Source: Polytrichum commune (taxonomy: Eukaryota > Streptophyta > Polytrichopsida > Polytrichales > Polytrichaceae). From it: 64,000 bases of DNA. Made by a program: the position numbers and the translations under genes. Where the stretch lies: positions 8,089,001 to 8,153,000 of the forward strand of contig OX485807.1 in NCBI GenBank assembly GCA_950295325.1, in the 5' to 3' direction. Numbering within the stretch: position 1 is the stretch's first letter; the number at the start of each line of letters is the position of its first letter. The notes beneath the pieces are model-generated. The model had not been told where the DNA came from, did not search any database, and saw only the letters and a program-made list of their open reading frames with translations. This document shows positions 15,191 through 62,780 of the stretch, in pieces.

Positions 15191-15232
15191 GTCGACACTA
15201 GTGTTGGCGGGTTCCAGTCTGACCCTTGTGAG

Positions 15233-37900: not shown

Positions 37901-39979
37901 AAGGCATTGGTGGGAGTCGTCCATCCCGAAGGTCAAAGGGTTGTTATAGATTCGGGCTCGGGAAGTCTAGGTCCTAATTTTTACAATTATGGGGATAATG
38001 GGGATTATGCCCAATGGCTAAGGGAGTACCCCGAGTCCGAGGTTGATGTAATGGTTACATTTCACCAAGTAGGCTTAGGGAGTGAATTTCCTAGTGTTAG
38101 TTTAGGAGAGGGCTCATTGTTGGAGCCATGTGAGGTGCTCACCGAGGAAGAGTGGGTTAGCGGTGGGTTAACACCTTGGGTAGATGACGTGGAAGAGGGT
38201 GAGGTTAGTTTAATTCATGTAGATGGGACTCAAGAGGAGGATGTGATTATTGAGTCATCGAAATTGGAGGAGCCTTTACATTTCAAGACCACGTCTACGG
38301 GGATAGTTGTAGGTCAAGATGTGAAAGATTACCCCAATGTGCCTTCCGATTGGTATCGGAACAAAGAGGAACAAGCACATGTGTCGGAAGCGGATTGGCG
38401 GTACGTGGATGTGAAATTAAAGAATGGAAAAACCCGACAAATGAAGATGGGCTCCAAATTGGGGGAGAAAGAGGTTAGGGAGTATAGCAATTTGGTGGAT
38501 GAGTTTAGTGATACTTTTGCATGGTCCTACGATGAGCTTAAGGAAATTCCTAGGGAAATGGTAGAGCACCGGATTCCTTTAATTCCGGGGGCGAGGCCAA
38601 TTAGACAAAAGGAGAGGAGGATGCATTTACAAGCGGACCACTTGTCTAGGTTGTCGGAGGAGATAGGAAAAAATCCGGTAAATGATATGTTAGTAGATGA
38701 TAGCCTCTTTGTGGTCACTTCTACACCGGAGTGGTATGCGGGCATAGTGGAATTTCTAACAACCCACAAGTTGCCCAAAGAGTGGACAAAAGAAGAGAGA
38801 AGGAAGGTGAGGGTAAATAGTAGGCAATTTGTTGTAGTGGGCCATAGGTTGTTTAGAAGGGGGTCCGATGGTATTTTACGACGATGCGTGTCAAAAACGG
38901 AGGTTGAAGCGATTTTAATCGCTTGCCACGATAGCGCTTGCGGCGGTCACTTCTCGGGTCAACTCACCGGGCAAAAAATACTTAGAGCGGGCTACTTTTG
39001 GCCTACACTATTTAAGGACGCCCATTACTATGTAAGGAAATGCGACGCTTGCCAACGGTATGCCCGAGACGACCTTAGAATGGAGATGCCTTTACATGTA
39101 TCATTACCCTTAATTCCTTTCGAAAAATGGGGCATCGACTATGTGGGTGAGGTCCATCCCCAATCTTCAAAAGGAATGAAATATATTGTGGTGGCAACCG
39201 AGTACCTCACCAAGTGGGCGGAAGCCAAAGCGGTGAAGACCGACACGGCGGAACACGCGGCAACATTTATGTACGAAGACATAATTTCGCGGTTCGGGGT
39301 GCCGAAGATCCTAGTAAGCGATAGGGGTACTCACTTTTTGAATTACTTGATTCGAGAGATGACAGAGAAATTTAAAATTGATCACCGGAAGACTACTCCC
39401 TACCACCCACAAACCAATGGACAAACGGAAAGGGTTAACGGAATTTTGGTGAGTATACTACGCAAGACGGTTATAGACTCGAAGCGGGATTGGGATACGA
39501 AACTAACGGCGGCACTTTGGGCATACCGTACAACCTATAAGGTAACTACGCGTGCTACACCATTTTCCTTAGTCTATGGTCTTGAAGCGACACTACCAAT
39601 CGAATATGAAGTCGAGTCACTTAGGGTGGCCGTGAGTACGAGACTTACCGAAAGTCAATCCTTACGAAATCGACTAACCGATTTGGAAGCACTTGACGAA
39701 GGGAGGAGCATGGCGGCTCAACATATTGAGGCAATCCAAAGAAGGAGAAAGATTACTTTCGACAAACGACATAAGAGAAGGGCCCTAACACCGGGAATGA
39801 TGGTCATGATTCAAGACGCACGAAAGCTTGAATTTCCGGCGAAATTCAATGCGGTATGGTTAGGACCTTACCTTGTCTATGAGGTCTTTCCTAATAATTC
39901 AATTCAATTGGAAACGTTGAATGGTGAGCTCTTTCCTACCCGTACATCGGGAAGTAGATGTAAGGAGTACCGAGCTTGA
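34937..39979 (+). CDS. gypsy Gag-Pro-(RT/RH deleted)-Int polyprotein, 1,680 aa
   Basis: One uninterrupted ORF. Domains in order: retrotransposon gag core near residues 150-280; a CCHC knuckle CVQCGQPGHTRQFC near 430 and a second Cys-rich motif CSNCGGSHPSDTC near 517; a DITFGQLLE segment, then the aspartic protease with LVDGGSSLNIL near 850. The usual start of the reverse transcriptase region (GARPIRQKERRM, near 1225) then runs directly into HLQADHLSRL, the usual end of RNase H. No YxDD-type motif or RNase H core exists between. Next come the integrase zinc domain (CHDSACGGHFSG...CDACQR near 1330-1370) and the integrase core with GIDYVG, SDRGTHF and GQTERVNG supplying D, D and E. About 1.5-2 kb of normal pol is missing but the frame is preserved. 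It ends 61 bases before the 3' LTR. Confidence 0.92.
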   Translation: MQGRTRSQKPSLIVGLEKSTRKRRSSKISDRLEQDNVRIESCLNVEPRTRSILDTLELGAQLEEEITPSKLSGETSSENYTLREEFPVEVDRGLLNSSPVTMAEERGMDPPPIPPIPPIPPIPPIDPLVRPRGLPIVVPQNLAAMDMPSHLPKFYGTKDEDPSRHMERYIERLASFLITNPGYWLVWFPTTLEGEAYEWYRDHAEGHFRGWEQLQREFLNEFRPEVGQSTALRALSSLKQGREEEISAYIRRFDLVCTRFVGTMLNDDTLKQFFIQGFFKSGTIRGVLERNPLTLADAKRAARDIENLDKDHERLWRREDELIPQFIPIRPRVVAVEPAKYENQIPYAIVDTGPRPLAVREPAPLLALPAPRTDPHLEEVERRLGASQLGFQEAMIKQMQSLTDQMSLMIRSQQPGPPPPVESGRHSSGLWCVQCGQPGHTRQFCRSGQNRDQRGNGNPPQQNQRGQAPPHYGNGSNRGPQPRGQGGQNLEKKEFHPFCGRWHAQGQCWSEGQEFNCSNCGGSHPSDTCRQPDKIINVPYPVANPQQQARDNMRGARPQGVPANELRPPNLYYDHSNARQTFHPPAGLQTTTGYIPIQNRQGVPPNGSNGRQAPPTDPGPSNSQDVRFMDGVLEATCDDMLPLPTRIGEEQSQWPPYTNAITYELVKGKGVVEEAPALAVTTRARRGDAPLEVGIGEQGNYSSDEEINLSELDRVARRATKDVERENIILQDRERTNAVHDLDNSDVGEWEGPGVPVDEFDVVGNSKVERSTGYDLWADLSTLKADITFGQLLEISPTARKTLKEGMPVHKRMRKVKAKIAARIQSQGGRDVKAIEIEVVIVDKVVPNVLVDGGSSLNILPEDTMKKLGLGLMGPSPLVINMANQSSTTPLGMIKDCRMTTGGEEYLVTFHVIKMHSNKDTFPILLGRPWLRMANAMVNWGGPKPSITYGPEGNRVIVSIGSLEGWMKKEMYLPLEKEIDDLNENEIGKALVGVVHPEGQRVVIDSGSGSLGPNFYNYGDNGDYAQWLREYPESEVDVMVTFHQVGLGSEFPSVSLGEGSLLEPCEVLTEEEWVSGGLTPWVDDVEEGEVSLIHVDGTQEEDVIIESSKLEEPLHFKTTSTGIVVGQDVKDYPNVPSDWYRNKEEQAHVSEADWRYVDVKLKNGKTRQMKMGSKLGEKEVREYSNLVDEFSDTFAWSYDELKEIPREMVEHRIPLIPGARPIRQKERRMHLQADHLSRLSEEIGKNPVNDMLVDDSLFVVTSTPEWYAGIVEFLTTHKLPKEWTKEERRKVRVNSRQFVVVGHRLFRRGSDGILRRCVSKTEVEAILIACHDSACGGHFSGQLTGQKILRAGYFWPTLFKDAHYYVRKCDACQRYARDDLRMEMPLHVSLPLIPFEKWGIDYVGEVHPQSSKGMKYIVVATEYLTKWAEAKAVKTDTAEHAATFMYEDIISRFGVPKILVSDRGTHFLNYLIREMTEKFKIDHRKTTPYHPQTNGQTERVNGILVSILRKTVIDSKRDWDTKLTAALWAYRTTYKVTTRATPFSLVYGLEATLPIEYEVESLRVAVSTRLTESQSLRNRLTDLEALDEGRSMAAQHIEAIQRRRKITFDKRHKRRALTPGMMVMIQDARKLEFPAKFNAVWLGPYLVYEVFPNNSIQLETLNGELFPTRTSGSRCKEYRA

Positions 39980-40040
39980 CTAGGCAACTTACCCTTGGAG
40001 CAAGAGATGTTTGGATTCATCCCCCGATGGTCGCCAATTA

Positions 40041-41606
40041 TGTGAGCCCAAAAGGGTGCCCACATTTAGTCTTAGACCCTTGAAACGTTAGTTGATGCAC
40101 TTTGAAGTAGCATGTTACTTCACAAAAATATAAAAAGAGTGAAATGTTAGTCTTAGAAGTACCATGTTGTAAGAGGCTAGGATGTGAGTTGTTATTGTGT
40201 TTTTACCTTCGGAAGGATTTGAGTGAATGAGGATAGGTAAGGAGAACTTGGATTGAGTAGTTAGTGAGTAGGCTAGTACAAATGGATGGAGACAACCAAA
40301 GTGACTCAAGAGGCAAGTGCATTCGAATTGGGATGAATGGAGGATCACATGGAGCGCACAAGTGGACCACCTCATCATGGCCACTTAATGGGGGAGGCCC
40401 AAGGAAGAATGCAAGGTGGAGGATAAGCAAATTCTCAAAGCACCAATCAAATCACGAGTTAAGCATCGTGGTTTGAATTAAGTGGTGAGCGACGATTTGG
40501 GAAAGTAAGGGGAGAAAGGTATGGCGGCGGAAAGCGAAGGAGGCTAAGTTTGGGTTGAAGCATCCCAAGTTTGGTAAAGTGTGGTAGGTAGAAAGCCAAG
40601 GCTAGTTAAGCATCCCAAGTTTGGTAAAGTGTGGTAGGTAGAAAGCCAAGGCTAGTTAAATGTTCGAATTAGGATCCTTGTTGATCATTTGAGGGAGGAA
40701 GACTTAGAAGATAGGATTGGCGCCTACTAAGTAGGAGGAAATCTCAAGGGCTTATCGTGAGCCTTGAGGGTGCTCACCCCCTCAAGCTTACTATATAATC
40801 CCTCATTCTTCCCTCACTCATCCTCTCTTTCCTTTGTGCTCCAAGGCACCCCACGAGTTATAAGTGTGGGTGTGGGAAGCCATATTGGAGCACATGTGTG
40901 TGCTTAGTTTTTAGTTTGAGAGCCAAGGCTTGTTAGCCTTGAAGAGGGCTTGACCTCTTGGTAGAATTAGTGTTGACGTGAAGGATTTTAAAGTTAATTC
41001 ATGATTCCAATTTGTGGTACTTTAAGTTCATGTTTTGAATACACGTGGTTGCAAGTTCCATGTTTAAGAGTTGAGCACTTGATGTTGTGATGAGTGCAAA
41101 ATTATACTTGTGTGGATTAGTTAGTCTTAGTGAAGTTAGGAAATTCTCTCTCCCCCTCTCCTCTCTAGGATTTTAGGATTTTAGGATTAGAGAAGAATTG
41201 TGTGATTAGAAAGGGGTTGTTAGTAGAATTAGGGAAATTAGGTAGGAAGATTAGTTAAGGGCTTGAATAATTAGTGAGGTAGTTGGGGATTACAACTACA
41301 AAGTTGTGGGTTCATGAAGGAGCTGGGTTTATGAAGGAGCTGGGTTTGTTTAGTTAGAAAGTAAAGAGCTGGGTTTATGAAGGAGCTGGGTTTATGAAGG
41401 AGCTGGGTTTGTTTAGTTAGAAGCTAAGAAGCTGGGTTTATGAAGGAGCTGGGTTTATGAAGGAGCTAGTTAAATCCAAGACCACTTGAAGGGTGAACCT
41501 TGCACTATGGACTCATCCAAGTCCAAATCCAATACCGCGGAGGAATGTGAGCCCAAACCCACTACTCGGACTACGGACGCTTAAGGGTGGGGGGTTTGGC
41601 CTCACA
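40041..41606 (+). repeat. 3' LTR
   Basis: Same 1,566 bases as the 5' LTR. Immediately before it lies GATGGTCGCCAATTA, the complement of a primer-site-like TAATTGGCGACCATC, where a purine-rich tract would be expected. Confidence 0.93.
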
Positions 41607-41849
41607 GATTAGAAAGGGGTTGTTAGTAGAATTAGGGAAATTAGGTAGGAAGATTAGTTAAGGGCTTGAATAATTGGTGAGGTAGTTGGGGATTACAACT
41701 ACAAAGTTGTGGGTTCATGAAGGAGCTGGGTTTATGAAGGAGCTGGGTTTGTTTAGTTAGAAAGTAAAGAGCTGGGTTTATGAAAGACCTGGGTTTGTTT
41801 AATTAGAAAGTAAAGAGATGGGTTCATGAAGGAGCTTAGTAGATAGCCT

Positions 41850-42390
41850 ACCTAATTAGCTCATAGACAAGTAGTTAGTTACATTATGCTAGTTAGTGTT
41901 ATGTGTGGCTTTCACAAGTAAATGTATTTGAGATTGACTATAGAGAATAGTGTTTTTTTTAACACTTGCATCCTCTCTTTAAAAATAAACCACGTGCACA
42001 ACTTAATGGAGAATGTGGAGCACTCTCGCGATGGCAAGACAAAGGAAGCAAAGACCAAAGGTGCGATGGAGAGATTGACATAAGTCACATAAGTATTTCT
42101 TAATATTTAAAGGCTTATGTACGGTATGGAGACACCAAGTGAGACCTCTTATAGTAGCGATACGGAATACACAAGTGATAGTTCAAGTGGTAGTATAGAG
42201 TCAACGGCACGGACTCCATTTAGGAGAGGGATATCCTTAAGGGCTTTTGTAGCTAAAGCAGCCGGATGGACGTTAGAAACAAACAAAGACAAAATAGCAC
42301 CCGAGCATAAGGAGGTTAAAATAACATAGTTAACTTGTGCATTCTCCACATACGTATTGAAATCGTACATTGAGTTGTTAAAAGTGAAAT
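41850..42390 (+). other. Extra segment in the older LTR variant
   Basis: About 540 bases between LTR positions that are adjacent in the young LTRs. It contains AATGGAGAATGTGGAGCACT and an Ala/Lys-rich reading frame also found, reversed, in the solo LTR near 28400-28540. So it is either an ancestral part lost in the young family or a shared insertion. Confidence 0.6.
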
Positions 42391-42532
42391 TCCAGTTAAA
42401 TTCAAGACCACTTGAAGGGTGAACCTTGCACTATGGACTCATCCAAGTCCAAATCCAATACCGCGGAGGAATGTGAGCCCAAACCCACTACTCGGACTAC
42501 GGACGCTTAAGGGTGGGGGGTTTGGCCTCACA

Positions 42533-45034
42533 GCCTCCCGCCGGTAATCGCCTTCCCTGAATGGGGACCTTTCGTCTCTTCTGAATTCTATCATTGGTTC
42601 AAACCGAATCCTTCTGTCATTCGTTTCTCGCCTAGGAGTGATCGCTCCTGGCCTTCGATTGGATTGGGGTTGTATTTGATTTACCCCATATCTTCTATCC
42701 CGGGGTCTCCAAGATTCATGCCGTTCGTAAACACACTCGCTAGTGTTGTGGGTTAAGCTGTTACAATTCGTACATTGTTTCATCTGACACTCTTGCACGT
42801 AGTGCCCTTCATTTCGGCATCGCCGACAAATTATGCCCGTTCTGAATTTCCGGCTTCCCAAAGCCAGTCCTTCTATCTCTTCTCTGAGAGTTTTGATGCC
42901 ATCTTTGGTTGAGTCATTTCTTCCACTCTTTGTCTTCTTTTTCTTCTTTTTCCGTTCTTCTTCAGAATCATCGCTTGATTCATCGCTGTCACTCTCGTCA
43001 TGGAATCTCCCTTTTCTCATTTGTCCTAGCTCCAATTTCCGAGCTGAGGCTTTGGCTTCGTCTAAGTCATCGGTTGGCATTAAATCGATGTGCTTGGCAT
43101 ACTCCTTTTTCAACCCATTAAGGAACCATGTTTTCTTGAATTGATTGCTAGGTTGAGGGTGAATCTTTGATGATTCCACCATAACCCTTTCATAAAATTC
43201 TTCGACTGTCTCATCTTTCTTCTGTTTGAGGGAGCCTAAGCTCTCAATGACTTCCCCCTCCGATTTCTTTGATCTGAATCTCATAAGAAAGGCAGTTCCT
43301 AAAGTTGGCCAATCTGGAAAATGATTTGGGCCAAATTGGGAGTACCATTCTAATGCTCGCTTCTTCAAGGTGACTGGAAATAATTGCAACTTGATTGCAT
43401 ATGTGTCTTCCTGGTTGGCAAGACACACATTGTTAAATTCTTGCATGTAAGTGTCGGGATCTGTCTTACCTTTGTAGGTCGGTAAGGGAACCTTTGTTCT
43501 CCGTTGTTGTGCAGCCATGTTGGCTGAATTGGGTGGGTTGTTTCCAACACTGGGTGGATTGTTGCTCTTGGCTGGTGGTGGGCTGACTCCGGTGTTAATT
43601 CCAAGGTTTTGGAATTGCTTAAGTTTCTCTTCAAACTTTCTTCGTAGTTCGTCAAATTCTTCTTGACTGATGGGTCTTTTTACTCCTTGGTCTGTGTTAT
43701 CTTGTGTGCTCTCTCCGGAGAAGCCGGAGTCTTCAAAGCTAAATTGTTCTTCAAAATTTCTTTTCAGTTTCTCCCAACTCCTTGGGTTGAAAAGATTTTC
43801 CTCGGCCGTGTTTCTTTGATGGGTGTTGTCCTGCGCTTTATCTACTGGGGTATGCGTACCCGTGTTTTTACCTGTACCTTTTGTTCTCAACACATAGGTT
43901 CCAAGAGGGGTACCTATTATCAGATCATCCTCATCTTCCTCGTTTTCTCCCTGATCCAAGTTCTCTTCATCCAAGTCTTCATGTCCTTTGTTTGTCTCAC
44001 CATTACCTCTTCCTTCACTTTGACTTCTATGGTGGCTGGGCTTAGGGGTGTGGGAACCTATTGCCGGTGGTTCAGAAGCGTATTGGCTCTCTTCACTTCC
44101 TGTAGTTCGTTGTCTTGTACGCCTAGCGTACCTCTCTTCTCTTTCTCTCTTGAGTTGTTCGGTCCGCCTTATGCGGTCTTCTCTAGAATGCATGCGCTCC
44201 ACATGCTTCTTCTCTGCCTCCTGTTCTCTAGGAGTTGGTGATGTACTTCTTGTACTAGATGTATCCTCATGATCAACCATGTACGCTACTAAGAGTGTTT
44301 CGGGGTCATGGTCTTGGCCGGCTCTCTCAGCTCTGACGCCTCAATGCACCCGTACTTCACCTGTTTGCCTATGGATGATTACTTGGACACTTGGTTTAAG
44401 TTCTTGTTTCTTGTTCCTGCTCCTGCCCCAAATTCAAGTTCCCCACACTACCATGCAAACCACCATACAGAGGTAAGAATATCTTTCTAACATACAAATC
44501 GTACAACAGACCTTCTTGCTTGTAATGGTAACCTCGATGTCGCGTTGCTCCTAACACATAGGCGCTAATTCCTTCTCTTCCGTCATTCCATACCTTAGAG
44601 AAAATTATTGCCTGCAGCTCCTCTGGTAACTCAGCAATGTTTCTCTCAAATTGTGACCGGTACGTGAATCCTATTTCTCTTTCTTGGTGTAATTGCCAGA
44701 CCTTATCTTCATACATCTTCTGCATATCCCACATGAGATCGTGGAATCTCCTGGTTCCTTCTCATTTCTTCAAAGTTGTCCGACTGGTATCATACTTTGG
44801 ATAATCCCACGGCCACTTACCCAAAGCCAAGACTTCTTGTTGCTTTGAGTCCTCTTCTTCTCCTCCTTCGCTTCCCTGCACGTAGAATCCTCGGAGATTA
44901 AACTGTTCGAGTCTCCGTTGCACTGCTCTCTCTATACGATCTTGCTTCCGCGGTCCAAATGTTTCTTCCCATTTGCGTCTCTCATTCATCTCCTGTTGGA
45001 GTCTCCCACAATATAGGTAGTACATGTTCTCCAT
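42533..45034 (-). pseudogene. gypsy gag, 5' and central part, degenerate
   Basis: Minus strand, starting about 110 bases after the LTR end at 45144. The first ~90 codons run into a TGA at 44762 and continue in the same frame to 44396. A frameshift and stops separate this from a 580-codon block (44280-42533). That block has a charged Arg/Glu N-terminus, a gag core (CLANQEDTYAIKLQLFPVTL... to about 43120) and two knuckles, CRRCRNEGHYVQEC and CTNCNSLTHNTSEC. It stops at the GCCTC target duplication; the remainder lies at 31343-30450. Confidence 0.85.
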
Positions 45035-47581: not shown

Positions 47582-50229
47582 CTACACTTCTTGATGCGCG
47601 GGACCCGGGCGATCTGGTAATCCTATTCGAAGGATTGTCCCCTGATTGATGGTGCCGAAACGGCCAGTATTGATCGTGGTTTGTTGATCTTCCAGCGTCT
47701 GATTCACATACTCCTTCAGTTGAAACAAACTTACTTGGGTGGGAAAGTTTGGGTAGTGATCCAGAAGCCACTGGTGTCGTCTTGTTGCCTCGAAGCACAC
47801 GGCGGTGTCCTCTCCTCGCAACGCGCTAACTGCATGTTGAAAGGTTGCCTTATGCTGCTGTTGTAACTTGGAAATTTCAAGTTTTTGACTGTGTGTGTAT
47901 GAGCGCAGGGATGGTAATGCATGGTTGATGTTGTAACCTCTCATCTGGTTTGCTTGGTGTTGTCCCATTGATGCTATATTGCGTAGGATGTATCTCCTGA
48001 TGAAAAATGGTGGAGATCCGGTTGTTACTTCTATACAGCCTAATGGTAACTTGAGATCCCCTACTGCCCACATGAAGGCCAAAGTATCCTTCGCCCTAGA
48101 ATCCGCGTGTGCCCACAGTTCGCCGAATTGGTCCTGATTCAGGGACGCGCCTTTTCGGATTATAGGTAAATTGCTGGTGAACAATGTGAGTGCTCCGTGT
48201 GCATGGTAACCTTGCATGATTGATGTGAGAGGTTCGGTGTGGTTCAACAGTCGTCTGAAAACTTCAGATTTAGGATGGGTCGAAGATTGCGGTAAACCCA
48301 TCTGCCCTATCGGGATCTGCTCGTGCTGAAGTTGGTGTTGTAATTCGTCCTTTTCTTGTTTGAGCATCTGAAGTTCTTGTTGAAGATCGCTGAGCAGCTG
48401 CTCTGCTGCTCCTTCGGCAAGTGTTTGCCGCTCTGTTCGGTACAGGGGTCGGTGCGTATGGGGGCCGAAATCTAGGTCCGACCTGGTGGCCGAAATTGAT
48501 GTCCTGGCAGCCATGGCTGCCCTAAGTTCCTTGTTCTCTGCTCGCAACGCAGCAAGCTCTGTCCGCTCTTGCTGTTGGTTTCGGAGGACTTCTGCTGGTC
48601 GATTTATGTGCAGGTTCCTAGATTCAGCATCCTCGCCGAATTTAAGTAGCTGGGCCGCATTGCCGCAAGTTCGATGTCATTATCCCTGCATCACTGCGAG
48701 GTGGAACTCTCGAGGTCCTGAAACTTGGTGAGTACGTCCTGGACTTCTTTCTTTAACCGCTCATTCTGTGCTTGGGTTTCAGAAAGTTGGGTTTGTATTT
48801 CAAAAGAGTCTTCTATGCACATGTTGTTAAGCTCTTCTGCATCGAGAAGTTTTTTCTCCAATTGTTCAATTTGCATATAGTGCGTTTTAAGTATCTCTGA
48901 CTGCAGCTTCTCTGAGCTGCTGCCTGGGAGTTCCATGTCCTCATGCAGGACCGCCTCCCGCTGGGCTTTGTAAAACTGAGAGTCCAATTCTCTCAGTAAC
49001 TTGGGGGGTGCTTTGTTTGCCAGGGTAGTGAGCAAATTCTCCATCCTCCGGTGTGCTTGCTTTACTTGTTTGATGATGTTGGGGATAGCGTCTGGAACGT
49101 GCCAAGGTTCCTCTGTCTCGAGTATTACCGAGCGAGGTGTTTCCGAGGTTGATGGGGGTGCGGATGCAGAAGGGCCCGTTTGACGATCCGGACCGGTTGG
49201 TGCTACCTTTACTGTGCTATGGAGAGTGGGTGGTTGTATGGAGGCCTTAGTGTACTTCCTCCTTTTGGGTGGGTCATTGTTTGCAGCTGTAGTGAAGGGT
49301 TTGGCGATGTGAAATCCCGCCTCAATTTCCTGTCTCAGATTCATAGCGCCTGCTGCCTTAATAAGAAGGGTGAGGTGGGGGCCTATTGTGGTCTTGGTCA
49401 CTTTTACTGCAGTTTGAGAATGCTTGTTGTGCAGTTTTATAACTTCTTCCCGGAATTCTTGATAGAATTCTCCTGGCCAATCTACTGCCTGACCATTTAG
49501 GGCTGCCTGGATAAGCTCCGCAAAAGTTACCGAAATGTGATTTTGGCCAGCAGTATTCAGACAAAATAAAGAACTCAAGAGCCTGAGAGGTTTCTTAGCC
49601 CCTGGGTATGTACAATCTGTTACCTTTACTGTTTCTTGTCCTGGAGCCAATGTTTCGAGTGAAGGGAAAAGCTCTGACAGTCCCCACTGTTTGGTTGAGG
49701 TGATTTTCCGATTGGTGAGGTCGAAAACACTTCGCATTTGTGGTCTCCAATCTGTTGCAATGAGTGGGAAAGTCTTTCCTTGCACTGTGGTGACCATGGT
49801 GTCTTCTTTGAGGTTTGACAAAGCCTCCCGCACCAATGCCTCATGCAATACCCCCCAGGTGTTTTTGGTCACAAAACTCTCTAAGTTGATTTGCTTAAGA
49901 AAATTGACCTCTTCCAAGGTGAACTGATGGTTCCTAAGAACTGCATCAACCACAAAAATGTACCTTGCAGGTTCCTCTTCCCCTTGTCTTCTCTTCATCT
50001 CAAAATTTGTTTCCTTGAGGTTGAGCACTGCTTGGCACCACAGATTTTGGTAGGTGTGGAACTTGCACAACAGGGGATGCCACTGCAGCTCCTTCGTGCT
50101 CCACCGCACCAAGGTGAACCCTTCCAGGCACGTAGCTCGCAACTGTTTCCAAAACATCCCCTGCTCATCTAGCTGGGGTACGAGTTCATATAGGCTTTCC
50201 ATTGCGACTCCCTTCCTTGCTTCAGGCAA
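47582..50229 (-). pseudogene. Accessory coiled-coil ORF downstream of integrase (broken)
   Basis: A 512-codon frame (50229-48691) ends in TGA. The reading continues past the stop and, after a frameshift near 48650, joins a 321-codon frame (48547-47582) whose open frame extends upstream of its first ATG, with coiled-coil character on both sides. Together they suggest one protein of about 880 residues. The N-terminal ~330 residues contain no domain I know. The centre is Pro/Thr-rich and the rest has heptad-like Leu/Glu/Gln/Lys stretches. It has no transmembrane segment or signal peptide, so it is not an obvious envelope gene. It ends 41 bases before the polypurine tract, so it lies inside the retrotransposon, in the place where some plant gypsy elements carry an extra ORF. 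Confidence 0.65.
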
Positions 50230-51882
50230 TTCTGTTACCCTGCTCTAACTTCCCGAAATTAGGTGCTGGTGTGGCAACCGCTACGTTTCTGATGTGAGCG
50301 CTGATATGAGAGTTGGGTTTCACTTGCAACGCCTTCGGTTGAGGTTCAACTGAACTTTGACAGTTGAGGTTCTTGTGTTAGGGTTTGGAGAGCTCAGCTG
50401 GCTTGCTTTCTTTGCCAGCTGGGTGGTGGGTCCCCGTCCAGGCTGGTCTTCTTTCCATCAGGTATTTCCCCTCAACCCAATTTTCCACTTTGTAACCTTT
50501 TGATTTTTTTTTTCACCTGCTAACTCTGTGTAGTGGTTTTGGTGCAGGTACTTGTAAGTCCTTACTCCTGTGGGATTCCCCACTTCGGTGGGTCGAATCC
50601 CCATTTCTTTGGGGTCCACTTGTTGGACCCCTCCCAACAAAAACAAATTGGATTGATTTTTGCTAACTTTCTGCAGTCGTTGTAGTAACTCTTATCTTTT
50701 ACTGGCCTTGTATCAAGTTTTGTGACGCAATCTCTTTTCTGTGCTTGCTTGTAAAAGGTTGAATCTGCATTGATTGTACTTTGGTCGATTCTGCCCCATT
50801 TGTTCATTTCAAACTGTTTGTGTCATGGTAACTTCCAGACTCTCTTTTCATCACACAAAATACTTGAATATTTTAATAAAAGGTTGGCAAACTGCCAGGG
50901 TAGTTATGTTCCAGCTGAACAACCTTCTGCAAAACACTTCATGACTCACTCGCCAGGCACCTTTCTTCGTGGTGTTGTAATTTCGTGATTTCGTAATCAC
51001 GCCTTGAATGAACAGAAATGCTAAATTTCCATCCAGGGTAATTCATCCCGATTTCTACTTTGTATACGATTTCCTTTTACTTCAGCAATTCGACTTCCAA
51101 TGGTTAACTCATCCGACTATCCTGAAAACATCCTCTCTTCTGTAATTTGAATGATCTGAAACCTTGCTTACTATCCGTGTAAAGTCGAACCCCTATTGGG
51201 GTACTCCGAAGCCACGTCACTACAGTCTTCCCGGTATTCAAGTTGCCCAAATTATGTGCCAATTATTTTCCGTTTCGGTTAAGTTGAGTCCATATTTTAA
51301 AACTCCTTCTGGTGATTGAAATCGTCGTAATCCTCCTTATTTGTTCATCCATTCCCGTGTTCATATACATCTTCCCCGGTAAAATTTTAAGTAATTGCCA
51401 CATTCCGTCAGCATATGTTTAAGTACGCCGTACTATCCTTCCTGGTACAATCAAGTTTCTTCTTTCCAAGCAAATTTTTGTTTGGTAATTGATTCTTATT
51501 AAAAGGTGCCCCATGTCTATAATCAGCTCCGTTTTTCAAGGTTGGGACTTAGTCTCCTTCCATGATAACACTCCGTCGGAATATGTGCTCACAAAAATAG
51601 GTCTTCTTAGTTGAATCGTCACTCAATAAGGTGGGTGGTGACACGTCCCCATGTCATTTATTTATTTGGGAATCTTCTCTCTTCTTTACTTGGTGGCTAT
51701 TGACTTCTAATGATCCTAGGTTAAATCTATTTTGGCTACATCCCTTTTGTGCTTGCTTGGGTAAATACATTTCCTATTGACTCCTTTCATCTTTCAGTGG
51801 GGCAATAGGGCTCTAACTGGTTTACTATGCCAGTGGGTTATCTCAGGTGAGTCTTTACCTGGGTTTTATTCTCTCAAAATTT
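50230..51882 (-). other. Spacer between integrase and accessory ORF
   Basis: About 1.65 kb with no conserved frame. It could be an intron or leader of the accessory ORF. Short ORFs here show no domain. Confidence 0.45.
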
Positions 51883-52019
51883 TCATATGTGAGTTGGCTC
51901 CACCCCAGTTAGCTCTAAGCCAGGTAAGGCGTGGTAGGCATGGGTTGTATTCCTCATAGGTGTTGTGGTTCCCGAATTTTCTCCCGAGCTTGGTGGTAGT
52001 TCCCATTGGGATACGGGTT

Positions 52020-52175
52020 GGCATCGTATGGTATGTAGGTTGGTTTCTTTTTCGTCCCTTTGGTCGTGCCTTATGAGGTTAAAGGTATCTCTCTCTTGTT
52101 GTAATTGTATGGTATGTAGGTTGGTTTCCTTTTCCTTCCGTTGGTCGTGCCTTATGGGGTTTAAGGTATCTTTTG
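52020..52175 (-). repeat. Internal duplication in the integrase tail
   Basis: The peptide phrase NPIRHDQRKEKETNLHTI is followed 27 residues later by NLIRHDQRDEKETNLHTI, a tandem duplication of about 80 bases. Confidence 0.85.
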
Positions 52176-53499
52176 GATGAATATTCTCTTGTTTTGAGGG
52201 ATGTATGTGGTACACTTCTAGCATGACCCTATGCATTTCCAAATCTTCAGCATCTAAGGTTTCTTGACTTTGGTGGGAAGTGGAACCAGTATGTGAAATG
52301 GTTTCCTTATTCGATTGAGAAGATGTGGTGATGGGAGTTGGTGTAGTACTAGTCCCTTTGTATAAAGGATTTTGTTTTGCTCGTATTTCCGTTTCTAAAA
52401 GGTGGCATGCTAGAATTTGTAAGGCATAAGCCTGAGTCGTTTCGGGCTCTTGGTATGGTTTTAGTTTGTTCATGTTGACTCGTCCCAAACTATCCCCTTG
52501 TAGGGTGGTAACATCCACTGATCCATTATCATAGACTTGTTGAATTAGGTAAGGTCCTGCCCATCGTATTTTGAACTTGCCCGGCCCGGGTATTTTATGG
52601 CGCAAGTGCCATAAGATTCGTTGGCCCGGATAAAAACGTGTTTTGGGTGTAGTATTTTGCTCCCCATCTTCGTTACTTCGAGAGTTTTGACTTTTCTCCA
52701 TAGCTCGAGTAGGATCCTCTTTCAAAGTGTCGTGTTTCTTAGCCTCCTTTCGTGGTGGCTTGGTTATCCCAAGGTCACAATGTTGACATTGTCTCTTCGC
52801 CCGAGGTTTGTCATGTCTTTCCTTTCGTAATAGCTGCATATGTGTCATGTTTTCTTCGGCTTCATGTCTGGTTAAATCCATAGTTCTGAGCTGTTCCATT
52901 CTCTTCTCGAGTATGGGATGAAACTCTTGATTCCGTTTCTGATAGACGTCGGGGTGAAGGTAAGCCATAGGTAACAAGGCTTCCGTCCCGAACACTAATG
53001 AGAACGGAGTGTGCTTGGTGGTAACCTTATAGGCTGTCCTATAGGTCCAAAGTGCTGCATGTAACTTGGTGTCCCAATCTGTTCGATTGGCATTAACCAT
53101 TTTGGTCAAGACAATCTTAATTACCTTGTTGGTACTCTCTGTTTGCCCGTTTGCTTGTGGGTAGTAAGTGGTTGACTTCCGATGTAAAATCATGAACTCT
53201 TGAGTAAGCACTTTGATAGTGTCATTGATAAAGTGACTTCCTTGGTCGCTCACGAACTCCAATGGACAACCAAATTTTGTAATAATTTCCTCAAAAAGGA
53301 ATTTGGCTGTGGATTTTGCCGTGTTATCCTTCAAGGCCCTGGCTTCCACCCATTTAGTGGTGTAGTCGGTAGCCGTGATAATGTACCGATTCTTGGTACC
53401 TTTAGCTGGCGGGTTGACCGGTCCGATGAAGTCCAAACCCCATTTCTGAAATACCTCTGTGGGTATCGTGGGATGTAAGGGTTGGAGATTGGTTGAGAT

Positions 53500-56400
53500 T
53501 TTTGGGCCAACCCTTTGGCAGATATCACATTGAGTGCAATAAAGATGGACATCTTTCTTCATGGAGGGCCACCAATACAAGGCAGTTAAAACCTTGTGTA
53601 AGGTGATGTTGGCTGAAAAGTGCCCTCCAGCTATTCCTTCATGAGCTTCTGCGATAATGGCTGTAGTTATTGGTCCAGCTATGCATGTCCTCCGTATACC
53701 ATCGGGCCCTTCTTTTATCAAAGTCCCGTTGTGGTTTAGCATGTATGGACGACTTCGTATGGCGATTTGTTGTCGCTGCGTGGTTGAGGCTTCCGTGGTC
53801 AGCCTCCCGTGTGTTAGGTAATCGATGAAAGGTATTCTCCAGTCCGGTTCTTCTTGGTCCTTGATCGTGACAGTTTTGCAGTCAACAACATGCTCCGGGG
53901 TTTCATTGGGCCAACAAACTCTACATTTCTTGCATAGATGGTCAATGTCCGGAGGAATTGTGGGCCACCAATAAGGCCCTTGGGTGACTTGTAAAATCAT
54001 TTCATCCATTGAAAGATGAGGGTACCGTTGATTGTGAATGGTTGTCAACCATTCGATTCCTCTTTCTTGAGAGATGCACAGTCTCGTTTGCCCATTTGCA
54101 AAACTTCGCTTTAACTTTCCTTTCTTTAGAAAGTAATGAGGTAATTCTGTCCGTAAGGTACCCAATTCTTCATGAAAGGCGAAGTCGCTTAGTTCCATTG
54201 GGTTTTCGAGGTATTGAATGATTGGTTTTCTCCAATCATGTGCCTTCTGATTCTGGAGGAAGATAGTCCCGTAGTTCTCGATTTTAAGGCCTGACGTTGT
54301 GGTGTTTTGACATGGTGTACATTCGTCAATTACTTGCGCCACATCTGAAGAAATGGTTGGCCACCAATATGGGCCTTTGTGTACTTGTGTGAGTACCTCT
54401 TTTCTCGTCAAATGTGGTATTTGGTATTCATGTATCCGTTTTATCCAATCCAACGCGTCATCTTTTGTCACACACATTTTTACTCCCTCATTTTGTAATC
54501 GATATTTCAAACCATCCTCGGTTATGAAATAAGTATCGGCGTCGGGGCTGAGTAGTCCCAACTCTTCATGTGTGCCAATACGGTTCAACTCCTCAAAGCT
54601 CTTTAGTCGTTGCGTGATCGGCTGTCTCCAATCTGGCTCAGGGGTTGGTTTTGGTGAAGACGAGTTTTGACCTTCCTTGGGATGTTTCTCCGGTGTCTTT
54701 ATTTCTCTGCAGGTTTTGCAGTATCTTAAATGATTGCACACGTCATTTCCCCATGTCGGCCACCAGTACATCCCCGTGGCCACGGCCTTCCATGTCTCTA
54801 TGGCGGCCAAGTGGGGTCCGCTTTCCCCATGGGTCTCGGCTAGGTACCTGGGAACTTGTGCCTCAGGTATACAGACTTGGTTACTCTTTCCTCCTTTGCG
54901 TATCCGTTGTAATGTGCCGTTGGTGAACACAAAATACTTATGGCTTTGCTCTACCGCCCTTTTCACTTCTGGTGGTAAGGTTTGGTCGAAGATTTTCCTG
55001 CATGTCAAGTATTCCAAGTAGGGACGTCTCCAATCTAGGTTTTTTTTACCTAGAAGTGTTTGTGTTTCCTTCTCTTTTGCAAGCCATATTTGGTTGCTGC
55101 ATACCGGACATTTCTAGTTGCACAAGTTTTTAATGTCAGCTCCGCACGTGGGCCACCAGTATGGTCCAAATATGACTAGGTGCCACATTGTCTCTTCGCT
55201 AAGATGTTGCCCGGATTCAGTAACATGTAGTTCTTGCAGGTACTTGTTGATCTCACATCCCGCAATACATATCTTAATATCTCCATTCGCCAAGATTCGC
55301 TTTAGTTTCCCTTCTTCAATGAAATATTTTCGGCTTTGCCGAATTATTTTCTTGTATTGATTTTTCGAGATGCGGGGCCCTTTCAAGTACCTGTATGTGA
55401 GGTATTCTATAAGTAATTTCCTCCAATCCTTGTTGTCATGAGCTTGTACGATGACGGACCCGCAAATTATGTTATGGAGCGGGCCTCGAAATCTTCTTCG
55501 ACAAGACGGGCAGTCGTACATAATGTAGATTTGTATGTCGCATAGCCCCATCGTGGGCCACCACCGATTCCCTTGCGAGCATCGAAGTCAACTTTGATGA
55601 TCGTCCAAGTGTCTTTGCTGGTGTACGTGCATTTTCCCTATCCAATGCTTTATTTGGTAACCAGTAATGCAGATTTTAGCCATTCCATTTTTCTCTAGTT
55701 TTCGAAGTTTTCCCTTTTCCAAAGTGAAAATTTCGCTCTCTCGTATGGTTTCCCTCTGCCCTCTCTGGGTCTCCATATCCATTTTGAATCTTCCATGCGC
55801 CAGATATTCGACTAGAGGCGTTCTCCAATCGTTGAAGGTTTTTTTGTATGGTATAATGTCCGTCCCGTTACCAGGTTCCGAAGAGCTGGCTTCTGTTGGC
55901 AACTCTTCTCCTCGTTCTTCACACCCGGTGCATAGTGTGATGAGTAGTGAGACGTCTTCCGCTATAGTTGGCCACCAATAAGGTTCTTTTAGAACCAATT
56001 TCTTGGTGGCGCTTACGGAGAGATGCCGATTTTCTCGTATGTGGAGGGTCTTGATGTAACTCCTCACATACCTTCCAAGCATACATTTCTTTGTAATGCC
56101 GTTATGAAACATGCGGTGTAACTCTCCTTCAATGAGTATGAAGAATCGGCTTCGGTACACTACCAATTTTCTCTCTTCTTTGGGTAGGGAACTCACCCAG
56201 GGGGTTCCGTGTGTTAGACAAGTTAGATGTTGGACATATGGTGTTGTCCAATCCGATTCTGCTTTTCTTGTCATGTCTTCTTGCGCTTCCAAAGGTTGGA
56301 CAGGGAGTGGATCGTCATCGTCTTCGGAATCTTGTGGGGTAATGTTTCCGGTTTCGTTTCCTTGGTCAGCAACCTTACATACTGGGCATTCTTGACAATA

Positions 56401-56698
56401 TTCCAGTACGTCTCTTCGTCGGGTAGGCCACCAATATGGGGTGCGTAGTATGTAATGCCATGTTGAAGTTAGGTTGTAGTGTATCCCATCTTGTTCATGG
56501 GCTTCATTTATGACTTCTTCAATGATATTCCCAGCTATACACTCATGTATCTTGCCGGAGATGCTGACCCGCATGAGCTTCCCGTCGTCTAGAACGAACA
56601 GCTCACTTAGTTGCCTAATCTTGTTCTGTTCTTGTGGGGTGGCTAGAGTTGACAACAACTTCCCATGGGTCAGGTACTCAATGAACGGTGCTCGCCAA
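53500..56698 (-). repeat. Eight integrase zinc-binding modules, 390-445 bases each
   Basis: Module starts (the DWR-like motif, minus strand) lie near 56700, 56258, 55833, 55430, 55037, 54636, 54237 and 53847. All eight keep the two His, the WWP core and the Cys pair at the end, while the rest differs strongly. So the duplications are old and the zinc ligands were kept. The two nonsense codons fall in modules three and four. Confidence 0.85.
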
Positions 56699-57230
56699 TA
56701 ACACTATATTCGTTAAATTGAGACTTTCTCTAGTCTCAAATTAATATATGGATCAAACAACATTCCGTGTTCCGAAACTATATTGCGAACAATCTCAAAT
56801 ATATTATATGTTCTAATATCCCAAATCTATGGGGTGTGGACATAAGCACATATGGTAGAGCACTCAACACCAACTTCATCAACAAAAACACTTTGGGTAG
56901 AGCACTCCAAACTAGTTTCACCCAAGAAACATATAAAATGATTTCTATTATTAGCATGGTCAATAAAATATAGACATTGCAACATACAAAGTACATGCAA
57001 TAAATGCATTTTTCTTCAATGGAAAATTTAGTCCCAAACTTAATAAAAAAATGAACTTCACAACTGTATTGAAATATAGTAAATGGATATTCATCCAACC
57101 CCAAACAATATAGCATTCGCAAGTTCTACCCAAACTTTGCCCCAAGTTTGAGGAGCACACATATGAGTAATATATATTCGTCGAATTACATATTACACTA
57201 TAATCATGCTAACACAATCCTACCAACTTC

Positions 57231-60200
57231 TCATTCAACGTGGGTTGCTTCTTCTGCGATCCGAGCAAGGTTGTCTTTTGCAAAAGTTATGTACTTTTGA
57301 GGGATGGACACTGATCCACTATGATTTTTCCGTGGTTTCCATGCTATGAATATGGAATCTATATCTACCCAAGATGGACCGTGTTCAGAATCCACCTTCC
57401 ACCGAAAGTTAGGGTTTGTATCCCAGCCTGTATAATGCCGAACAACATCTTCATTCCGTGTTGTCGGTCGGTAGTACTCTACTTGTATTTGTCGAAAATG
57501 AGGGCTGGAAGTTACAAAATTTGGTTTGGACAAAGCTCTTGCCACCCACATTAGCTTTGCATATGTCTCATCTCCAGGACGCAAAATGAGCATATAACCT
57601 TCATAACAATCCACTGCAATGCGGAAAGATGGTGGCGGACGACTACTAGCAGGTCCCACGTAATGGTCGTCCACATCAAACTCCTCTCGAACCTCTCCAT
57701 TTCCCAAAAGACTAGCCTCCGAAACTTGTACGTTGACACGTGTTTGTGGCCAAAACCCATGCCTTAAAGTAAGGGGTGTATCTTGATGAAAGTTTGCCAA
57801 AGCGCCACGAACACGTGTCCAATATTGTATCCAACTTCCGTAACGAAGCCAACACGATCCACCATCATCCGCTACCCTCAAACTCTCCCAATATTGTATG
57901 AAGCCTGATATGCCTTTACAAATGTCCTCCAAATTCTTCATGGATATTGGTTTGCAAGGCTTAGGCTCTCCGTCAGGCAACATCGTCCTTCCCTCCCCAT
58001 CAACACGCCATACAAGGAGACCCTCCGGCGGGCTCCAGTCTTGTGACGTGCACAACAACTTGTATTGCATGGCGGGGACACCATCGTCACGCACGTAGAA
58101 CCGAAATTGTTGTACCTTCGTATGTCCGATCAATCGGTGAGCTCCGCTTCGAATATACGGTTCTATAAATGCCTTGAAGTCGGGAACCTCCTCGATCATA
58201 TGGGGGATGACGGGAATGTTCTCCAAATCCATGTACGACTTCATCAACAATGGGATTGTTGGAAAATCCTCCTCGCGCAACTTCATGCTCCAACGCCCAA
58301 AAGATGCATCGATATCGTCGTGCGTGTGGCCTACCAATAGAAAGGACACAAAAACCTCCTTGAAAATGCCTTTCGCAACTAACAACGACCAATATGCAAA
58401 AACATATCTACTTTTATTGTCCTTCGCACAATTGTCCAATTAGACACGTAGAGTTGGGGGCAAATTCTTGGCTATCACATCTTCAGTTGGTGGCTCCGGC
58501 AAGGAGTGCACGCATACATCTCTTCCATCCAAGACCGCTTCATATAGAGGTGTTGATCCCGAGTTTTCAAATAACAATCTTGATGAATAGGACGGCGGTT
58601 TCTCCAAATCACGTAAAAACTTTGCAAATGACCCTATTGTGTGGTTTGAATCCGCCGGATACAAATCAAGAGCATAATGAGCATACTTGACATCACCGTG
58701 TCCATGTGCAATCATCCCTGCAAAGCCAACCCAATGGTTTAATATTCAACTATAACACCAAAAAATTCACATGGTGTACATCTATGGCCCCAAGTACAAA
58801 CCTAAAAGCACAAATTTGTGTTTAGGTAATGCAATGCAATTGTTATCGAAATCACCTGTAACCGATACAGGAAGCTTAAAAAGGCCGTCCGTGGCTTTTA
58901 TTCGATTTGCAAAACATGGTGAGGCTGTTTTGGCATGGTCCATTTTGTCATGGATGATTGTAAGGACCTCCAAAGGCCTAGAGATGGACAAAGCTCTATT
59001 TGTGTAGTAATCATTACGGTGTGCCTCTTGCATGTTCACATGCTTGAAATAGTTCATTTGATGTGCGGCATAGGACTCTGTCCCCATCATGTGTGCATCT
59101 CGAAGGCGTTTCAACTTCTCGCATTTGGAACAACAGGCAAATTTGTCGCCTCGTCTTTTTGTGATGTATTCGCTAAAGTGAGATTTTTTTATTGCACTCA
59201 GTTTCGACAACGAAATAGGGTCCAACCCAGCCTTCTCGCCAACTGCGTTTACGTCCAACAATATGTCTTTCCATTTCGTGTCTGTAGGAAGAACCTTCTC
59301 CACAACCTTTTCACCGGTTGAGAGTGTACGTGTTTTGTGCGGCATTACATCGGCAAGGGGGACAATGATGGTTGCCAGAGTGGCTGTTGCTTGTCTCGTT
59401 GCTTCCCTTGGTTTCTTTAAGCCCGTATTCCCATGGTGACGGGACCGGCGTCCTTCCTTGGCATACGCGGCTTGTCTATAAAATTCCGCTTTCGACACAC
59501 CGTGAATGGTGTACCATGCCGTACAACACACGTCTATGCTCTCAAGGGTGATGACCTTTCGACCCGCTCCGTTCACATGTATCGCCCTATGGACATCAAG
59601 CTTTTTGGTGGATCTTAGACGGAAATCTCCAAGCCACATTTCCTCGCGGATGGCCTTCAATTTATCCCTTGGGAACAATTGGCAACAACGATGTACACAA
59701 CAATCCTTTGTGGCAACTTCTCTAATAGACTCCTCACAGAGCAACCTTTGACGTTTACATTCATTTGCAGACGGAGTAGGACGTGCCAATGTATCGTACT
59801 TCCGTAGGCCTTTACGTGGCCGAATGTTTGCTTGGAGCTCCTGTTGGATTTGGATGTGTCGTCGCTCATGCTAATGCAAATTAACCCCATCAATTGTCAC
59901 ATTCCTCAACGGCCACCTTCGCAACGAGAACCTATGAGTTGGATTCACTTCGGAATGTACGAGTGATTCCAATATAACAACTCCAACGTCCTCGGTGCCA
60001 AGGGGGTTTTCATCAATGCAATCTTGTGGATGTGTGTTACGACAAATACCCTCCGCCACAGCAACTCCACTGTCATTAACAAGTACCACATCCAAATTCA
60101 CCCATGAAGCTCGTGAAAGCCCAGCACATTCCACAGTGGGGCAAGAAGGGGCAGATGGCGAAGGGCTCCCCAAATGACCTTCATCTGCACTGTCACCAAA

Positions 60201-60299
60201 ACTATCCTCCCCGACAATGTCTAGGTCATCCCCAGACGAAGAATGGGAGTTGCCCATGTCTTCAGAGAAGGCATCCCCTCTTCCACCAGCTCCCTCCAT
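57231..60299 (-). pseudogene. DUF7869-like putative transposase, two nonsense codons
   Basis: Near-identical along its whole length to the gene at 16287-19354, including start context and intron position (exon 2 of this copy starts near 58718). A TAG at 59873-59871 and a TAA at 58442-58440 (where the plus copy has Gln, just before LDNCAKDN) interrupt it. The GHTHDDIDASFGRW block is intact. The copies differ by scattered substitutions. Function is lost unless readthrough occurs. Confidence 0.82.
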
Positions 60300-60520
60300 T
60301 TTGCCTACACACATGCACATGAAACCTCAACAAACATGCACACCATGTAAGGGTTCAAAAGAATCAAATATCAAAAAATGCAAGACATCATGATAAATGG
60401 GGACACCGAGGATAAAGACATTTGCAACACAACTACAATGTGAACTCCCAATACTTTGCGCAAGTTCCAAAAAACATTTTGGGAGGGGGTCAACCTCCAG
60501 CCGGCCAAGATGGGGTTGGG

Positions 60521-61269
60521 GTTTGGGTCGGTCGACCCAAACATTGTATGTCAAGGGGTCGAGGGGTTTTGGTCAAGCCCGCCCACACTGGTCGAGGGGT
60601 TTGGGTCGACCGACCCAAACCTGATCACAGTCAGGCTGAACCCACCCACACTCGTGGAGGGGTTTGGGTCGACCGACCCAAACCTAGTAAGGGTCAGGTT
60701 GAAACCCTCCCACACTAGTGGAGGGGTTTCGGTCGACTGACCCAAACTTGGTAAGGGTCAGGCTAAGACCCGCCCACACTAGTGGAGGGGTTTCGGTCGA
60801 CCGACCCAAACCTGGTAAGGGTCAGGCTGAAACCCTCCCACACTAGTGGAGGGGTTTCGGTCGACCGACCCAAACCTGGTTTAGGGTTTAGGGTTAAACC
60901 CACCCACACTAGTGGATGGGTTTCGGTCGACCGACCCAAACCTGGTTTAGGGTTTAGGGTTAAACCCACCCACACTAGTGGATGGGTTTCGGTCGACCGA
61001 CCCAAACCTGGTTTAGGGTTTAGGGTTAAACCCACCCACACTAGTGGATGGGTTTCGGTCGACTGACCCAAACCTGGTTAAGGGTCAGGCTGAAACCCTC
61101 CCACACGAGTGGAGGGATTTCGGTCGACCGACCCAAACCTGTGTAAGGGTCAGGCTGAAACCCTCCCACACGAGTGGAGGGGTTTCGGTCGACCGACCCA
61201 AACCTGTGTAAGGGTCAGGCTGAAACCCACCCACACTAGCGGAGGGGTTTGGGTCGACCGACCCAAACC
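60521..61269. repeat. Palindrome array of the inverted element
   Basis: About twelve units of 62-70 bases, each with GTTTGGGTCG or GTTTCGGTCG, a two-base centre and CGACCCAAAC, plus CACACTAGTGGAGG and AAGGGTCAGGCTG blocks. In three successive units (near 60880, 60947 and 61012) the spacer is replaced by TTTAGGGTTTAGGGTTAAAC, a telomere-like insert. Confidence 0.92.
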
Positions 61270-61532
61270 TGATAAGAGTCACACTAAAACCCTCAAAATC
61301 CGGCGGATAATGCGGCGGATAATCCGAAATCCCATATGATTTTGAGCTCATTGCAAAGTTCCCGGTGGGCTTCCATGCTGTGGATAGGTGCTCATGAACT
61401 TGCATGCTGTGGATAAGTGGTAATGAACGGCAGCATGCACGAACCTTGAAGTATAGCTCCGACTAAGAGTTCTCTCTACGAATTCAAAAGTGGGAGAAGA
61501 GCAAAAAAGGACAGAGTTTTGGGGGGTGCGTC

Positions 61533-61542
61533 CCTTTATACT
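61533..61542 (-). promoter_or_regulatory. Candidate TATA box of the inverted gene
   Basis: The complement reads AGTATAAAGGG, conserved with 14944-14953 and flanked by matching sequence on both sides. Confidence 0.45.
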
Positions 61543-62695
61543 ATCCACCTCCGTTTCTCCGACTTCCTCATTGGATGCCTTTCCCGCCTTGTTCTCCTGC
61601 AGCGGTTTTTTCAAACCTCCTGACATAATTCCCCGTTTTCTGTTTATAGTAGAAAATGCGCATCTATCAATGCCCCTCTCATACCCCAGCCGTCATATGA
61701 CTTAGTCTATGATATTTAATCTTTTTTTTTTGTCTTGTGTGGATATGACATACGCCGTTGGGAGGAAGGGTGGCGGCCACATTAATTTTTTCAAGTATCA
61801 TCAAGGTATATTTTAACCAATATGTAGACCCAAACACAACTCCATTCAATGCTTTCAAGTGTAAACCTATTTAGGTGGGGTTTGGGCCATTTGGAGGCTG
61901 CAATTATGAGAGAGTTTCCAAGGCTTGAGGCCATTGTCATGATGAATAGAAATATTTATTTGTCTCCCCTAAACCCTAAACCCTAGAACCTTGCTCTATT
62001 ATCTCGCATGCAAGAGTGGCAATGACGAACGTATGTGGACGTTGTTAAGGGGATACTAACTACCAATGTCCCTTTTTAGTTCAATATTTTAATGTTACTT
62101 GAATCCATCCTCAAGTTCACTTCAAGTTTACTAATGTGTGAGAGCAAAACATCGAAGATTGGACCCTAAACCCTTATAACATCCACAACATGAAATACGC
62201 ATTGACTAAATACAAAACCAATTAGGATATCATGTTTAAACGTCCCATATAACATATTAACATGATCAAGATTGTATTTACTATGACCTTCCGATTAGAC
62301 TCTTCTTCATATTATGCAAACAATATCTGTTATATCTTCCTCCATTATCTAATACACGTGGAGAGAACAATGAATAACAACATGATGTTGTGCTTCTCCG
62401 ATTTACTTTTACATCACATTCCATATATTAAATACATCATGAACGATGGTTTATTAGCGACTAATATGTGATTCCCTAAAGTGAGCGAAACATCCAAAGT
62501 TGGACCCCTAGCCCCTATTAACATCCACAATATTTCATGTTATTTGAATAAACACAAGACCAATCAATATATCGCGTTTAAACGTCTCAAATAAACACAA
62601 TATCGTCTTCACTATAACCTTCCTATAAGACTCTTCTCACGAGTAAGACAATGTTATACATTGACATTGGATAGATTAATATGTTATAACCCTAT

Positions 62696-62724
62696 CCCCT
62701 AAACCCTAAACCCTAAACCCTAAA
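62696..62724 (-). repeat. Telomere-like CCCTAAA run
   Basis: Four copies of CCCTAAA matching, in reverse, the run at 13313. A shorter run lies at 61970-61986. Confidence 0.85.
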
Positions 62725-62780
62725 CACCAAAATTTAGTAGTGGTTCACTGATGCCCCCATATACAAACAACATCTATTTT

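What the first reader, a model, noticed from the sequence alone, without database searches (positions are those of the whole stretch)
53500..56698. Eight tandem integrase zinc-binding (H2C2) modules in one gypsy pol gene
Normal Ty3/gypsy pol has one H2C2 domain before the integrase core. Here eight diverged modules of 130-148 residues all keep the His pair, the WWP core and the Cys pair. Strong divergence with conserved ligands points to an old expansion maintained by selection before the frame was broken by two stops. A multi-finger integrase might bind DNA or RNA along a longer target, or target specific chromatin.
Basis: partly seen in the sequence, partly recalled or inferred. Interest (0 to 1): 0.88.

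Follow-up and report, generated by a model that had tools for sequence, protein, structure and literature searches.

The report
Retrotransposon integrase with repeated zinc modules
A family of plant-type jumping genes carries not one but several (5, 8 or 11 in the copies examined) tandem copies of the front end of its DNA-inserting enzyme, and selection has kept these extra domains, which suggests an undescribed way of building or aiming that enzyme.

Summary
Confirmed: eight diverged integrase HHCC modules lie in tandem on the minus strand at 53506-56700. Each is a whole N-terminal extension plus HHCC domain (NED-NTD), as in Ty3 and foamy-virus integrase. The window copy is dead: two stops, and an unrelated element cuts it at 56699.

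It is no local copying error. In the same genome, 16 of 23 fetched relatives carry module positions M1-M8 in the same order (many with breaks), 6 carry eleven (an M1-M3 block twice) and 1 is truncated; a second family has five in 3 of 3. Where it was looked for, the array follows RNase H and precedes the core. Modules group by position across copies, so the expansion is old. Median dN/dS is 0.07-0.18 per module; pooled it is 0.09-0.25, against 0.26-1.04 in the linkers. Eighteen database proteins repeat the order.

Best reading: a Ty3/gypsy lineage whose integrase has a multivalent NED-NTD arm, probably for LTR-DNA or partner binding; this mechanism is inferred. Nine paper searches listed no earlier description. 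New variant of a known kind.

The parts
56365..56700 (-). Module M1 (NED-NTD); first module after RNase H in complete relatives; its first residue is cut by the element that ends at 56699
   Evidence: orthologue P0011 follows RNase H directly; same in genome copies
55909..56253 (-). Module M2 (NED-NTD)
   Evidence: position clade 100/99
55495..55830 (-). Module M3 (NED-NTD, RWWP core), interrupted by a stop at 55588-55590
   Evidence: clade 100/100
55090..55428 (-). Module M4 (NED-NTD), interrupted by a stop at 55114-55116 next to its Cys pair
   Evidence: clade 100/99
54697..55035 (-). Module M5 (NED-NTD); predicted fold matches Ty3 integrase NED-NTD
54298..54633 (-). Module M6 (NED-NTD); predicted fold matches PFV integrase NED-NTD
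53902..54237 (-). Module M7 (NED-NTD), sister of M6
   Evidence: M6+M7 100/99
53506..53844 (-). Module M8, the canonical integrase NED-NTD just before the core
   Evidence: (Ty3 7q5b and PFV integrase by sequence)
52492..53460 (-). Integrase core (rve) with intact D-D(35)-E (codons starting at 53433, 53247, 53139) and C-terminal part; exact limits approximate
   Evidence: (PF00665)
51883..55113 (-). Open frame holding the end of M4, M5-M8, core, C-terminal domain and tail
56699..62780 (-). Unrelated element with a DUF7869 gene that cuts the array; its inverted relative is at 13261-19887

Best explanation
This is a dead, truncated copy of a lineage of Ty3/gypsy-type retrotransposons whose polyprotein carries a tandem array of complete integrase NED-NTD domains between RNase H and the integrase core. 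SHOWN: architecture and order in many copies, array length that differs by whole modules (5, 8, 11), divergence by position before the copies split, purifying selection on each module, and fold similarity of M5 and M6 to Ty3 and PFV NED-NTD. INFERRED: the array grew from the canonical domain by in-frame duplication, at least partly before the two families split. In known intasomes the NED helps to hold the viral DNA ends, and Ty3's NED is reported to touch TFIIIC; here one chain would offer several such surfaces, each specialised by position, so the integrase makes a long multivalent contact with LTR ends, neighbouring integrases or a host factor.
For: Eight modules. Order RT-RNaseH-array-core in genome copies (RNase H and core), and RNase H joined to M1 in homologue P0011. 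Own genome: of 40 other strong M7 places listed I fetched 23; 16 have positions M1-M8, 6 have eleven modules, 1 is truncated. Of 26 family-II places I fetched three, all with five. Position clades with 98-100 bootstrap; M1 with family II's first module 96/84 and M6+M7 with its fourth 93/92. Median dN/dS M1-M7 0.10-0.18, M8 0.07, core 0.04, RNase H 0.05; pooled modules 0.09-0.25, pooled linkers 0.26-1.04. Ligand columns rank 2, 3, 9 and 12 of 110 among extra modules. Structure. Ty3 NED: passages of PMC8632968. Foamy-virus NED: passages of PMC3738965.
Confidence: 0.6

Rival explanations
1. Targeting arm: the array mainly binds a chromosomal protein or chromatin mark and fixes where the element inserts; module number and type set the specificity.
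For: Ty3's NED is reported to interact with TFIIIC (PMC8632968 passages). Extra modules evolve faster than M8 (median dN/dS 0.10-0.18 against 0.07) and differ in charge, as expected for partner-binding surfaces.
Against: No insertion-site analysis was done; no LTR pair of this family was found in the window.
Confidence: 0.25
2. Separate products: the element's protease cuts the linkers and releases single NED-NTD domains that act on their own, for example as RNA or cDNA chaperones or regulators of integrase assembly.
For: Linkers of 18-37 residues are nearly unconstrained at several joints (pooled dN/dS 1.04, 0.84, 0.85 for links 3-4, 4-5, 5-6), so modules look like independent beads.
Against: No cut motif was looked for; free linkers also fit a flexible joined array.
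Confidence: 0.2
3. Passenger array: modules multiplied by recombination and are tolerated but not used.
For: Array length differs by blocks of three; single positions lose ligands (M6, IIb).
Against: Low dN/dS in all eight positions while most linkers beside them drift; ligand and WWP columns kept although window modules are only 22-40% identical.
Confidence: 0.06
4. Local copying error or assembly artefact in this locus.
For: The finding was seen in one broken copy.
Against: 26 genome loci on seven contigs, 25 with 5, 8 or 11 module positions and one truncated; 24 of 45 database proteins with two or more module hits, partial ones counted; one clade of window modules rejected, p 3e-10.
Confidence: 0.01

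Closest known systems
Ty3 integrase (Saccharomyces, PDB 7q5b)
   Different: One NED-NTD per chain; has a chromodomain (PMC8632968 abstract), none was matched here by Pfam
Prototype foamy virus integrase (3l2q, 4e7k)
   Different: One NED-NTD per chain; a retrovirus
Single-module Ty3/gypsy elements of plants: P0030 from Fagus and the window's plus-strand element (their assignment to the OTA clades is recalled, not tested)
   Same: NED-NTD just before the core
   Different: One module; Tat elements have an extra RNase H instead (Neumann et al. 2019, PMC6317226, passages seen); the lineage of the present family was not placed by an RT tree
Family II of the same genome (P0012, L029-L031)
   Same: RT-RNaseH-array-core order; first, fourth and last modules related to M1, M6/M7 and M8
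   Different: Five modules; second and third modules not assignable to M2-M5

Membership tests
Ty3/gypsy LTR retrotransposon pol | Order RT - RNase H - integrase | tested here: met
   Not in the window (5' part cut off), but in genome copies: of 20 family-I loci L009-L028, RT is matched in 17, RNase H in 19 and core in 20 (two of them in part), in this order; in L024-L027 the fetched stretch begins within or after RT
Ty3/gypsy LTR retrotransposon pol | Integrase core with D-D(35)-E | tested here: met
   Residues 561, 623, 659 of the open frame, 35 residues between the second D and E; PF00665 41.2 bits
Ty3/gypsy LTR retrotransposon pol | Flanking LTRs, primer binding site, target-site duplication | tested here: inconclusive
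   No LTR pair found around the array in the window; whole copies were not fetched; primer site and target-site duplication not looked for
Integrase NED-NTD (HHCC) domain | Two His, then two Cys (CxxC), with the WWP core, in each module | tested here: met
   Window modules. Genome loci, full modules scored: HHCC in 27 of 27 M1, 24 of 24 M2, 24 of 25 M3, 15 of 18 M4 (one further M4 had no core by the pattern), 21 of 22 M5, 10 of 16 M6, 21 of 22 M7, 20 of 20 M8. Not met in M6 of some copies and in most IIb rows
Integrase NED-NTD (HHCC) domain | NED-NTD fold in extra modules | tested here: met
   M5 and M6; M7 and M8 show a similar order of helices and strands; M1-M3 model unusable; M4 not modelled
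Chromovirus | C-terminal chromodomain | tested here: inconclusive
   No chromodomain matched in the open frame 51883-55113 at E 0.01 against Pfam; a diverged one could be missed by sequence
OTA/Tat lineage | Additional RNase H (aRH) and RT phylogeny | not tested
   No lineage reference set at hand; RNase H is followed directly by module M1
Known integrases with one NED-NTD | A single NED-NTD | tested here: not met
   5, 8 or 11 module positions in 25 of 26 genome loci, one truncated with six

The most novel reading that the evidence does not exclude
A new integrase architecture, the poly-NED-NTD integrase: one chain carries a modular array whose positions are each specialised and whose length (5, 8, 11) evolves by whole modules, and which sets intasome assembly or target choice much as repeat arrays do in other DNA-binding proteins.
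Probability: 0.3. Interest if true: 0.9.

Novelty: new variant of a known kind. Interest (0 to 1): 0.75.

Why it matters
The integrases outside this lineage that were compared here have one N-terminal zinc domain per chain, as do all that I know of (recalled), and what the NED does beyond touching the DNA ends is open. A lineage that multiplied this domain up to eleven-fold, and kept the copies under selection while most linkers drifted, is a natural experiment on that domain. It makes questions on intasome multivalency and target choice testable, and it suggests that domain surveys of LTR elements that count only domain types can miss large architectural change.

Full report
Observation. On the minus strand, three open pieces in one frame (55588-56703, 55114-55587, 51883-55113) hold eight WWP...CxxC cores. 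Pfam Integrase_H2C2 matches the three pieces, the short one below its cut-off, and the integrase core rve follows in the third. A profile made from database homologues alone finds the eight modules (M3 in two pieces) and the plus-strand one in the window's 1200 stop-free stretches, and nothing in 20 shuffles of each. Module limits and linkers are: M1 56365-56700, M2 55909-56253, M3 55495-55830, M4 55090-55428, M5 54697-55035, M6 54298-54633, M7 53902-54237, M8 53506-53844; linkers 18-37 residues. Window modules are 22-40% identical to each other.

The window copy. It is broken by two stops, and its upstream part is missing: the similarity between two inverted copies of an element with a DUF7869 gene ends at 56699, at the first residues of M1. 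Probes with RT and RNase H found neither for this element in the window. The DDE triad is intact.

Relatives in databases. Three searches of the large protein set gave 45 proteins. A module profile gives two or more hits, partial ones counted, in 24 of 45. Eighteen belong to this family, and all of these hold modules in the order M1 to M8 without a skip; six belong to a second family. Six more of this family show one hit, mostly a partial M8; of the 15 others 14 have one module and P0044 none. P0011 joins RNase H to M1-M3; P0001 and P0003 join M3-M8 and M4-M8 to the core.

Relatives in the same genome. The genome (407.8 Mb) answered, which scored 150 of 1006 candidates, so counts are lower bounds. 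It lists 41 M7 places at 61% identity or more, the window among them. I fetched 23 of the other 40: 20 near the top of the list and three picked for long open frames, so the sample is not random. Sixteen carry module positions M1-M8, many with breaks; six carry eleven as M1-M2-M3 twice, then M4-M8 (L024, L025, L026, L027, L032, L033); one (L020) is truncated to M3-M8. L024 and L025 are alike and 27 kb apart, and L011 and L012 share a break 14 kb apart, so these are not independent. All hits lie in one frame without a stop between them in 6 of 23, and one search lists open frames of up to 3716 residues. In the 20 first-fetched loci RT is matched in 17, RNase H in 19 and core in 20, in that order. 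Of 26 family-II places I fetched three, chosen for long open frames; all have five modules between RNase H and the core.

Age. In the 86-module tree each position is a clade (bootstrap 98-100), the extras from both families form one clade (92/83) beside the M8 clade, and single-module elements fall outside (97/92). The smaller tree instead put M1 with M8 and the single-module row (96/88). In the 89-row tree with genome copies M1 joins family II's first module (96/84), and M6+M7 (100/99) join its fourth (93/92). At least three modules thus probably predate the split, though AU tests done before did not decide. M2 of the second block is closest to M2 of the 8-module copies L014, L016 and L017 (91% in L027; 99% in L032), and M3 likewise (78-79%); M1b is nearer to their M1 (78-80%) than to the other M1 compared (67-74%). 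This fits gain and loss of whole blocks by unequal recombination; the direction is not settled.

Selection. Counting substitutions between distinct copies (pairs with dS 0.05-1; window and 20 loci), median dN/dS is M1 0.10, M2 0.17, M3 0.14, M4 0.14, M5 0.17, M6 0.18, M7 0.15, M8 0.07, core 0.04 and RNase H 0.05. The seven linkers have medians 0.25, 0.16, 0.90, 0.76, 0.72, 0.50, 0.26 and pooled values 0.26, 0.26, 1.04, 0.84, 0.85, 0.56, 0.38, against 0.09-0.25 pooled in modules. Pairs share ancestry, linkers are short and link 1-2 rests on three pairs, so the numbers are rough; links 1-2, 2-3 and 7-8 are also constrained to a degree. Still, all eight pooled module values lie below all seven pooled linker values, by a hair at the edge (0.25 and 0.26). 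Dead copies push values up, so real constraint is probably stronger.

Zinc ligands. Across extra modules, weighted by position, the four ligand columns rank 2, 3, 9 and 12 of 110. In genome loci HHCC is complete in nearly all full modules except M6 (10 of 16; five of the six failures are close copies L023-L027 with the same changes). L033 and L034 show similar losses in M6, as do P0003 and P0004. Family II's IIb lost its Cys pair in 3 of 4 database rows. Thus most positions keep zinc ligands; a few keep the WWP core without them.

Mechanism. Shown: an array of NED-NTD domains, each under purifying selection, in front of an ordinary-looking core. Inferred: how it works. [quoted passage not shown] An array could multiply such contacts along LTR DNA, between subunits or to a host factor. 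I put multivalent DNA/subunit binding first, then targeting, then release of single modules by protease.

Novelty. Nine paper searches listed no paper that, by its title and the start of its abstract, reports repeated integrase zinc domains in a retroelement. The main survey of plant LTR elements names eight polyprotein domain types, with no repeat of the integrase front end in the passages seen. It is a new variant of a known kind: a Ty3/gypsy integrase with a poly-NED-NTD array.

Noticed in passing
13261-19887 (+) and 56699-62780 (-): Two inverted copies, 96% identical over 3.8 kb, of an element with a DUF7869 gene and TTTAGGG-like repeats at its outer part; one copy cuts the integrase array.
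   Followed up: partly
31344-42533, open frame 34916-39979 (+): A gypsy element with 99-100% identical long repeats at both sides and one 1687-aa frame in which no RT was matched; all 150 places scored in the genome are 98% or more identical over a 205-residue piece, many with a 2086-aa frame and several with a 1687-aa frame, so a deletion form may be spreading.
   Followed up: partly
42439-44340 and 30670-31368 (-): A gag-like frame with zinc-knuckle motifs (by eye) seems split by the plus-strand element; two further long frames (47582-48676, 48691-50244) of unknown kind lie upstream on the same strand; the second has no Pfam match, the first was not scanned.
   Followed up: no
P0007, P0027, P0028, P0029: Homologues in which M7 (P0007, P0027) runs straight into the C-terminal part, or the start of the last module (P0028, P0029) into other sequence, without the integrase core: apparent internal deletions that keep part of the array.
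   Followed up: partly
L023-L027, L033, L034 (module M6): Zinc ligands of M6 are lost although its WWP core stays.
   Followed up: partly
9617-9833, 11400-11591, 15196-15877, 60578-61292: Minisatellites whose units hold near-palindromes of the GGGTCGATCGACCC type.
   Followed up: no
L011 and L012: Two copies about 14 kb apart in opposite orientation that share the same break in M4: probably one copy duplicated with its surroundings.
   Followed up: no
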